Assembly: GCA_023133515.1 (NCBI GenBank)
Contig: JAGLWI010000002.1
Coordinates: 216,806-280,805, forward strand
Direction of reading: 5' to 3'
DNA from: Candidatus Babeliales bacterium
GTDB lineage: Bacteria; Babelota; Babeliae; Babelales; UASB340
DNA: 64,000 nt
Within the stretch, counting starts at the first letter, position 1. Each line of letters begins with the position of its first letter. The position numbers were made by a program, and so were the translations under genes. The notes under the pieces are model-generated. The model searched no databases. It had not been told where the DNA came from and saw only the letters and a list, made by a program, of their open reading frames with translations. Positions 10,562 to 10,918 of this stretch are shown here, in pieces.

Positions 10562-10918
10562 AAATAATGATGTAAAAATATTTTTTCTAAGATTTAAGAT
10601 TTAATATATTATTATTAATATATATATATAAGTAATAATAATAAGGGAGAGTGTTTTTTGTGGATAACTTCGTCTTTTTGCTCGAATTTGACTTGTAGGG
10701 CGCTGGTTTCGATTTTGTAAAATTGTTGATAACCTGTGGATAACTTGTTGATAACTTGTGGATAACTTTTTGATTTTGCCTGATTATTTCCTCCAGCAAG
10801 GAACTTTTTTCGGAGCTCCGAAAAAAGTTCCTTGCTGGTCGGGCTTTCGGGGCATTTTTAAAAAGTTATCCACAAGTTATCAACAGGTTATCCACATGTT
10901 ATCAACAATTTATCCGAA
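10562..10918. other. Probable chromosomal replication origin (oriC)
   Basis: Left array on the minus strand: boxes reading TGTGGATAA or TGTTGATAA at 10659-10667, 10724-10732, 10735-10743, 10746-10754 and 10757-10765. Right array on the plus strand: TTATCCACA or TTATCAACA at 10866-10874, 10877-10885, 10888-10896 and 10899-10907, plus TTATCCGAA at 10910-10918. Within each array the spacing is exactly 11 bases, about one helical turn, and strong and weaker boxes alternate. The arrays point toward each other around a palindrome. An almost pure A/T stretch at 10562-10643 is a candidate unwinding element. The plus strand goes from C-rich to G-rich here (for example 7 G/15 C in 8041-8100, 9 G/5 C in 12001-12060). 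TTATCCACA is the classical DnaA box. dnaA itself is not in the window. Confidence 0.85.
10793..10838. repeat. Perfect 46-bp palindrome at the centre of the origin
   Basis: Two 23-base arms (10793-10815 and 10816-10838) are exact reverse complements with no loop; the centre is GGAGCTCC. It is more GC-rich than its surroundings and sits midway between the two DnaA-box arrays. As DNA it could form a cruciform or bind a dimeric protein. The flanking DnaA-box arrays are themselves part of the same larger inverted structure, running roughly from 10723 to 10908. Confidence 0.9.

What the first reader, a model, noticed from the sequence alone, without database searches (positions are those of the whole stretch)
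10562..10918. A symmetric replication origin with facing DnaA-box arrays at 11-bp spacing
Four left boxes (10724, 10735, 10746, 10757) and five right boxes (10866, 10877, 10888, 10899, 10910) repeat at exactly 11 bases, alternating TTATCCACA with TTATCAACA types, and the two arrays are oriented head to head. A box at 10659 and an AT-rich stretch at 10562-10643 complete the layout. Typical origins have irregular box spacing, and such regular, mirrored arrays are unusual. The position agrees with the strand-composition switch. It sits between nusA and a UDG gene, without dnaA, dnaN or gidA.
Basis: partly seen in the sequence, partly recalled or inferred. Interest (0 to 1): 0.8.

Follow-up and report, generated by a model that had tools for sequence, protein, structure and literature searches.

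The report
Mirror-image chromosome replication origin of Dependentiae
This stretch is almost certainly where a parasitic Dependentiae bacterium starts copying its chromosome; it carries two mirror-image rows of binding sites for the starter protein DnaA at exactly 11-base steps, and this layout is kept across the phylum and resembles an idealised version of the E. coli origin.

Summary
Eight exact DnaA boxes form two opposed four-box rows at 11-bp steps, plus one box near an AT-rich stretch; the "fifth right box" (10910, TTATCCGAA) is degenerate. The cumulative GC-skew minimum of the 356-kb contig falls at window 10501; the other long contigs show no reversal. In a single-contig relative (G097) the local skew minimum is within 65 bp of its arrays.

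The layout is phylum-wide: found in 69 of 101 Dependentiae genomes (17 of 19 families), usually beside nusA. Shared parts are a DnaA-trio 13-14 nt from a lone R1-like box, a 64-69 (or 54-56) bp gap, a leftward array, a ~100-bp spacer and a rightward array. Box sequence drifts in concert within an origin, and changes at positions 5-6 coincide with an Asp-to-Asn change in the DnaA recognition helix. I also found an undescribed, position-locked ~20-bp motif in gap and spacer. A 46-bp perfect palindrome sits on the symmetry axis, in this genome only.

The topology is that of E. coli oriC, and similar layouts recur in other phyla. New are near-consensus boxes in fixed 11-bp register and the motif. 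Verdict: genuine oriC, a new variant of a known kind; mechanism inferred.

The parts
10562..10644 (.). AT-rich stretch, presumed DNA unwinding element
   Evidence: Sequence; AT-rich in the corresponding place of relatives; contig skew minimum nearby at 10501
10633..10644 (+). DnaA-trio-like repeat TAATAATAATAA, ending 14 nt before the lone box
   Evidence: in relatives a trio ends 13-14 nt before the lone box in 42 of 49 origins with a trio, control rate 2.3%
10645..10658 (.). GGGAGAGTGTTTTT: G-rich stretch between trio and lone box
   Evidence: comparable stretches in relatives
10659..10667 (-). Lone DnaA box (R1-like) TTATCCACA
   Evidence: 65 bp before the left array, 64-69 bp in 52 of 63 relatives' origins
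10693..10712 (+). Position-locked ~20-bp motif in the gap (candidate DNA-bending site)
   Evidence: PWM hit at +34 from the lone box, 10.3 bits; 9.6 bits with a PWM trained on spacers only
10724..10732 (-). Left array box 1, TTATCAACA
10735..10743 (-). Left array box 2, TTATCCACA
10746..10754 (-). Left array box 3, TTATCAACA
10757..10765 (-). Left array box 4, TTATCCACA
10793..10838 (.). 46-bp perfect palindrome on the symmetry axis (10815.5); only in this genome among those scanned
   Evidence: hairpin -25.4 kcal/mol against -7.5 for shuffles; absent from relatives
10832..10851 (+). Second copy of the position-locked motif, in the spacer; overlaps the palindrome's right end
   Evidence: PWM hit at +173 from the lone box, 13.3 bits; the usual place of one spacer copy in relatives
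10866..10874 (+). Right array box 1, TTATCCACA
10877..10885 (+). Right array box 2, TTATCAACA
10888..10896 (+). Right array box 3, TTATCCACA
10899..10907 (+). Right array box 4, TTATCAACA
10910..10918 (+). Degenerate right box 5, TTATCCGAA (two mismatches), in 11-bp register
9372..10433 (-). nusA, conserved left neighbour
10985..11656 (-). Uracil-DNA glycosylase superfamily gene, frequent right neighbour

Best explanation
This is the chromosomal replication origin (oriC). Shown from sequence: the parts, their fixed register across the phylum, single occurrence in the genome, coincidence with the GC-skew switch, and co-variation of box sequence with DnaA. Inferred: DnaA-ATP binds the lone box and the left array as one head-to-tail oligomer and the right array as a second, facing oligomer; the 11-bp step (2-bp linker) is the spacing that suits DnaA-DnaA contact. 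The gap between lone box and left array, and probably the spacer between arrays, are bent, possibly by one of the two HU/IHF-family proteins at the position-locked motif. Strain opens the AT-rich DUE, and DnaA passes from the lone box onto the single-stranded DnaA-trio, as at the B. subtilis origin. The two opposed oligomers would favour loading one helicase per strand, hence bidirectional replication. The central palindrome is taken as an incidental, lineage-specific hairpin. Confidence is for the origin identity (about 0.97) together with the opposed-oligomer model (about 0.75).
For: Contig skew minimum at window 10501, other long contigs monotone. Unique in the genome. Same layout in 69 Dependentiae origins beside nusA. 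Skew minimum at 1135744 against arrays at 1135679-1135709 in single-contig G097, and 964167 against 965006 in G048. Trio 13-14 nt from the lone box. Asp-to-Asn in the DnaA recognition helix only in genomes with TTATCGACA/TTATGAACA boxes. Position-locked motif confirmed on held-out genomes. HU/IHF-family proteins present. E. coli has 5 left and 5 opposite right boxes with an IHF bend in the R1-R5M gap, and 2-bp spacing is optimal for Thermotoga DnaA (PMC10316083; PMC6070618).
Against: No experiment on any Dependentiae origin or DnaA was found. The window genome is in 13 contigs, so its genome-wide minimum cannot be computed directly. G009's sampled minimum lies about 6 kb from its arrays. The bending protein is unidentified; the IHF consensus is not clearly enriched. 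In 32 of 101 genomes the mirrored layout was not found with these filters.
Confidence: 0.75

Rival explanations
1. It is the origin, but only trio, lone box and left array act in opening; the right array is an accessory (helicase loading, DnaA titration or timing) and the mirror symmetry has no role of its own.
For: Trio and lone box are the most tightly positioned parts; right-array number and register vary more and reach at least 15 boxes in G100. In E. coli the right half is mainly implicated in helicase loading (PMC6727663).
Against: The right array is present in all 69 origins counted (this was a condition of the count) and its boxes change in concert with the left ones, so it is under selection too.
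Confidence: 0.2
2. The palindrome on the axis is functional: it extrudes as a cruciform or binds a dimeric factor and folds the two arrays together.
For: Exactly centred between the arrays; very stable fold; the inner spacing keeps the common 109-bp value despite it.
Against: Absent from relatives scanned, including G064-G066 of the same family. Similar long palindromes lie elsewhere in this genome. Chance centring in a 100-bp spacer is roughly 1 in 50 (own estimate).
Confidence: 0.1
3. A DnaA-titrating or regulatory cluster (datA-like) that is not the origin.
For: Clusters of DnaA boxes can serve titration or regulation (PMC6727663); dnaA, dnaN and gidA are not adjacent.
Against: Skew switch at the same place, DUE plus trio beside the lone box, and no other cluster in the genome.
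Confidence: 0.02
4. An assembly fold-back or a recent inverted duplication created the mirror image by accident.
For: The arms form a 72-nt inverted repeat, 85% complementary.
Against: The arms differ outside the boxes, and the same geometry occurs in 69 independently assembled genomes with different spacer sequences.
Confidence: 0.01

Closest known systems
Escherichia coli oriC (R1, IHF site, R5M-tau2-I1-I2; C3-C2-I3-C1-R4)
   Same: DUE, then an R1-type box, a gap, an array in R1's orientation, then an array of opposite orientation; 2-bp linkers; about 5+5 sites; R1-to-R5M distance 55 bp, equal to the short Dependentiae class of 54-56 bp.
   Different: E. coli arrays are mostly low-affinity, ATP-selective sites (PMC6070618); here all boxes are near consensus. 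Most Dependentiae have one more 11-bp step in the gap and a spacer of about 100 bp. E. coli R1-to-R4 is 180 bp against about 242 bp here.
Bacillus subtilis / Helicobacter pylori basal unwinding element (DnaA box, GC-rich stretch, DnaA-trios)
   Same: Box, G-rich stretch and TAG/TAA trios in the same order and polarity.
   Different: Box-to-trio spacing is 13-14 nt rather than a 4-5 nt GC stretch; a single lone box; no dnaA gene beside it.
Mirrored-array origins of Aquificota, Poribacteria, Gloeomargarita, Spirochaetaceae and Lachnospiraceae MAGs
   Same: Most have trio, R1-type box, gap, leftward then rightward arrays. Sulfurihydrogenibium right boxes at 209/220/231/242/253 from the lone box match the Dependentiae lattice.
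   Different: Gaps of 43-57 bp; often an R1 doublet 4 nt from the trio; arrays nearly abut (about 18 bp start to start) in Poribacteria and Gloeomargarita.
Thermotoga maritima oriC
   Same: TAG trios and boxes with 2-bp spacing that give the best DnaA oligomers (PMC10316083).
   Different: Fewer boxes and a partly inverted arrangement at a 4-bp interval; no two long opposed arrays in that description.

Membership tests
Bacterial chromosomal origin (oriC) | Cluster of DnaA boxes above chance, unique in the genome | tested here: met
Bacterial chromosomal origin (oriC) | AT-rich unwinding element beside the DnaA-proximal box | tested here: met
   (sequence only; opening not tested)
Bacterial chromosomal origin (oriC) | Located at the GC-skew minimum | tested here: met
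   relatives
Bacterial chromosomal origin (oriC) | Replication initiates there in cells | not testable with these tools
   Needs marker-frequency sequencing
E. coli-type bipartite origin (facing DnaA arrays) | R1-type box plus left array in one orientation, right array in the other, 2-bp linkers | tested here: met
   definition from PMC10316083 and PMC6070618
E. coli-type bipartite origin (facing DnaA arrays) | Low-affinity, ATP-DnaA-selective sites in the arrays | tested here: not met
   By sequence the boxes are TTATCMACA consensus types; affinity itself not measured
E. coli-type bipartite origin (facing DnaA arrays) | IHF site in the R1-R5M gap | tested here: inconclusive
   A position-locked motif is there, but the IHF consensus is not clearly enriched and HU/IHF-family proteins score below IHF cut-offs
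B. subtilis-type basal unwinding system | DnaA box, GC-rich stretch and repeated 3'-GAT-5'-type trios in that order | tested here: met
   the window trio is the relaxed TAA form, relatives often TAG; spacing to the box is longer than in B. subtilis

The most novel reading that the evidence does not exclude
Dependentiae origins are a rigid two-fold machine: two DnaA oligomers in fixed helical register, folded together by a lineage-specific DNA-bending protein that reads the newly found position-locked ~20-bp motif in gap and spacer. With the E. coli and Aquificota layouts this would make the opposed-array origin an ancient bacterial plan rather than an enterobacterial peculiarity.
Probability: 0.35. 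Interest if true: 0.72.

Novelty: new variant of a known kind. Interest (0 to 1): 0.52.

Why it matters
Origin layouts are regarded as very diverse, with little overt likeness to E. coli beyond multiple R boxes (PMC6727663). Here a distant phylum keeps the E. coli topology with quantitative spacing, but with near-consensus boxes in place of low-affinity ones. That makes it a natural test of whether opposed DnaA oligomers, rather than site affinity, are the essential design. Concerted box changes matched by a DnaA recognition-helix change give a ready evolutionary experiment, and the regular pattern is a simple signature for locating origins in incomplete metagenome assemblies.

Tried and rejected
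IHF consensus WATCAANNNNTTR as the identity of the new motif: not clearly enriched, so not claimed. The spacer-trained PWM gave an 8.9-bit hit in the E. coli R1-R5M gap on the opposite strand, but at the background rate of the refined PWM this is not significant. A Rayleigh scan for an 11-bp period in the inter-array distance was broad and not decisive; the report relies on tabulated distances instead. Family f19 first seemed to lack the arrays; this was a change of box to TTATCCACC. No Rfam hit and no tRNA in the window. Promoter-like sites in the region are at chance level.

Full report
WHAT IS THERE. The window is G000:C6:216806-280805 of a 1.03-Mb, 13-contig genome. Public genome records with the same geometry are largely titled candidate division TM6, Dependentiae or Babeliales, so I take the genome to be a Dependentiae. 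Between nusA (9372-10433, minus) and a uracil-DNA glycosylase gene (10985-11656, minus) lies a 551-bp intergenic stretch. It holds an AT-rich segment ending in TAATAATAATAA (10633-10644), a 14-nt stretch starting GGGAGAG, a minus-strand box at 10659, four minus-strand boxes at 10724-10765, a 100-bp spacer, and four plus-strand boxes at 10866-10907 with a degenerate fifth at 10910. Twelve exact boxes in the window against 2.4 expected was reached by none of 100 shuffles. The whole genome has 16 TTATCCACA and 70 TTATCAACA, but no second 500-bp stretch with three.

IS IT THE ORIGIN. Cumulative GC skew over the whole 356-kb contig has its minimum at 227306, which is window 10501; the G+T minimum is at window 10524. 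The other long contigs run essentially in one direction only. In G097, a member of the most divergent family (f19) held as a single contig, sampled skew is negative from 480 kb up to the arrays and positive beyond; in the 20-kb sample around the arrays the minimum is at 1135744, with arrays at 1135679-1135709. G048 agrees within 1 kb and G009 within about 6 kb, over partial contigs. The published presumptive origin of Chromulinavorax destructans, 651641-652233, rests on skew and a TTATCCACA box (PMC6561590). In the passages I read that paper does not describe the array architecture, and my paper searches found no description of it.

CONSERVATION. Of 101 Dependentiae genomes held, 69 gave opposed arrays with my filters, from 17 of 19 families. 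The commonest numbers are 3-4 left and 4-5 right boxes. The lone box precedes the left array by 64-69 bp in 52 of 63 and by 54-56 bp in 8, one 11-bp step less. Outer-to-outer distance is 173-178 bp in 33 of 69. The trio ends 13 or 14 nt from the lone box in 42 of the 49 origins where one was found, against a 2.3% control rate for a trio in a random 40-nt stretch. nusA lies beside the origin in most, with UDG or a clostripain-family gene on the other side. Genomes are related, so these counts are not independent events; but the spacer sequences are not visibly conserved as a whole while the distances are.

BOX AND DnaA CHANGE TOGETHER. In family f19 most boxes are TTATCCACC; in G043 TTATCGACA, in G020 TTATCGACA mixed with TTATCAACA; in G034 TTATGAACA. 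The boxes of both arrays changed together while the 11-bp geometry stayed. Among 28 DnaA proteins read, four have Asn in place of Asp at the position equivalent to E. coli 433: G019, G020, G034 and G043. These are the ones whose origins carry TTATCGACA or TTATGAACA boxes; G019 has mostly TTATCAACA with one TTATCGACA. Residues 432-435 make base-specific contacts in E. coli (PMC5043019). G019 and G020 are one genus, so this is about three independent cases.

A NEW ELEMENT. A motif search (expectation maximisation) of gap and spacer found in each a motif far above dinucleotide shuffles (log-likelihood 140 against 71-83, and 166 against 72-86). The spacer consensus is about nwnTnrrTsGnTnTTTTnrr. 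A PWM trained on spacers only finds its best gap hit 30-33 bp before the left array in 33 of 47 origins; mean score 5.8 against 0.8 +/- 0.5 for shuffles. On 17 origins not used for training, gap and spacer scores again exceed all 200 shuffles, mostly at the same positions. Copies lie mainly near +35, +133 and +174 from the lone box. The gap copy sits where E. coli has its IHF site, so a bending protein is the obvious candidate. But the IHF consensus is not clearly enriched, and the two HU/IHF-family proteins do not reach the curated cut-offs of any HU or IHF model, so the binder is unknown.

THE PALINDROME. A 46-bp perfect palindrome (10793-10838) sits exactly on the axis of the arrays and would form a very stable hairpin. 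It is absent from the relatives scanned, and comparable palindromes occur elsewhere in this genome. I treat it as lineage-specific and probably incidental; its exact centring is unexplained.

HOW IT PROBABLY WORKS. In E. coli five left sites and five right sites of opposite orientation carry two facing DnaA pentamers, and IHF bends the R1-R5M gap (PMC10316083, PMC6070618). Same-direction boxes separated by 2 bp gave the best oligomer with Thermotoga DnaA. The present origin has the same order and orientation, 1+4 left and 4(+1) right boxes, all array boxes with 2-bp linkers. The E. coli R1-to-R5M distance measured here is 55 bp, equal to the short Dependentiae class. A match modulo 11 bp alone would be weak evidence; order, orientation and numbers carry the argument. 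By analogy the arginine fingers of bound DnaA face the centre (PMC6727663). Opening would pass from the lone box to the trio strand, as in B. subtilis and H. pylori. All these steps are inferred.

HOW NOVEL. The design is known in outline. A scan of 84,980 species' genomes for opposed exact arrays also returned Aquificota, Poribacteria, Gloeomargarita, Spirochaetaceae, Lachnospiraceae and Micrococcales loci. Several have a trio, an R1-type box and gaps of 43-57 bp. The scan pattern fixed the inter-array distance at 95-155 bp and required exact boxes, so it is not a survey of all origins. Distinctive for Dependentiae are near-consensus boxes throughout, the 11-bp register on both sides of a spacer of about 100 bp, and the position-locked motif. 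I class it as a new variant of a known kind.

Noticed in passing
L235 (G100), about 1500-1800: The right-hand array is expanded to at least 15 tandem TTATCCACC boxes at 11 bp, followed by a run of N and five more boxes; possibly an unresolved longer array.
   Followed up: no
L099 (G038): Opposed arrays with only about 27 bp start to start between them, yet the lone box is still 67 bp from its array.
   Followed up: no
L214-L240, spacers of G075, G076, G089, G090, G100 and others: Many spacers hold one extra central box, reminiscent of E. coli R2.
   Followed up: no
G000:C12:31576-31644, G000:C7:108526-108589, G000:C6:203805-203846: Other long near-perfect palindromes in the genome; the C7 and C6 ones share GAGCTTGTCGAAGGAT, suggesting a repeated hairpin element.
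   Followed up: no
window 11786-13165 and relatives L137, L156: A clostripain-family (Peptidase_C11) gene lies near the origin in many Dependentiae and is duplicated in some.
   Followed up: no
L131, L133, L140, L142, L146, L147, L170: R1-type box to left-array distances in other phyla cluster near 43, 51-57 bp, and E. coli has 55 bp; with 66-68 bp here this hints at 11-bp quantisation. Small, selected sample.
   Followed up: partly
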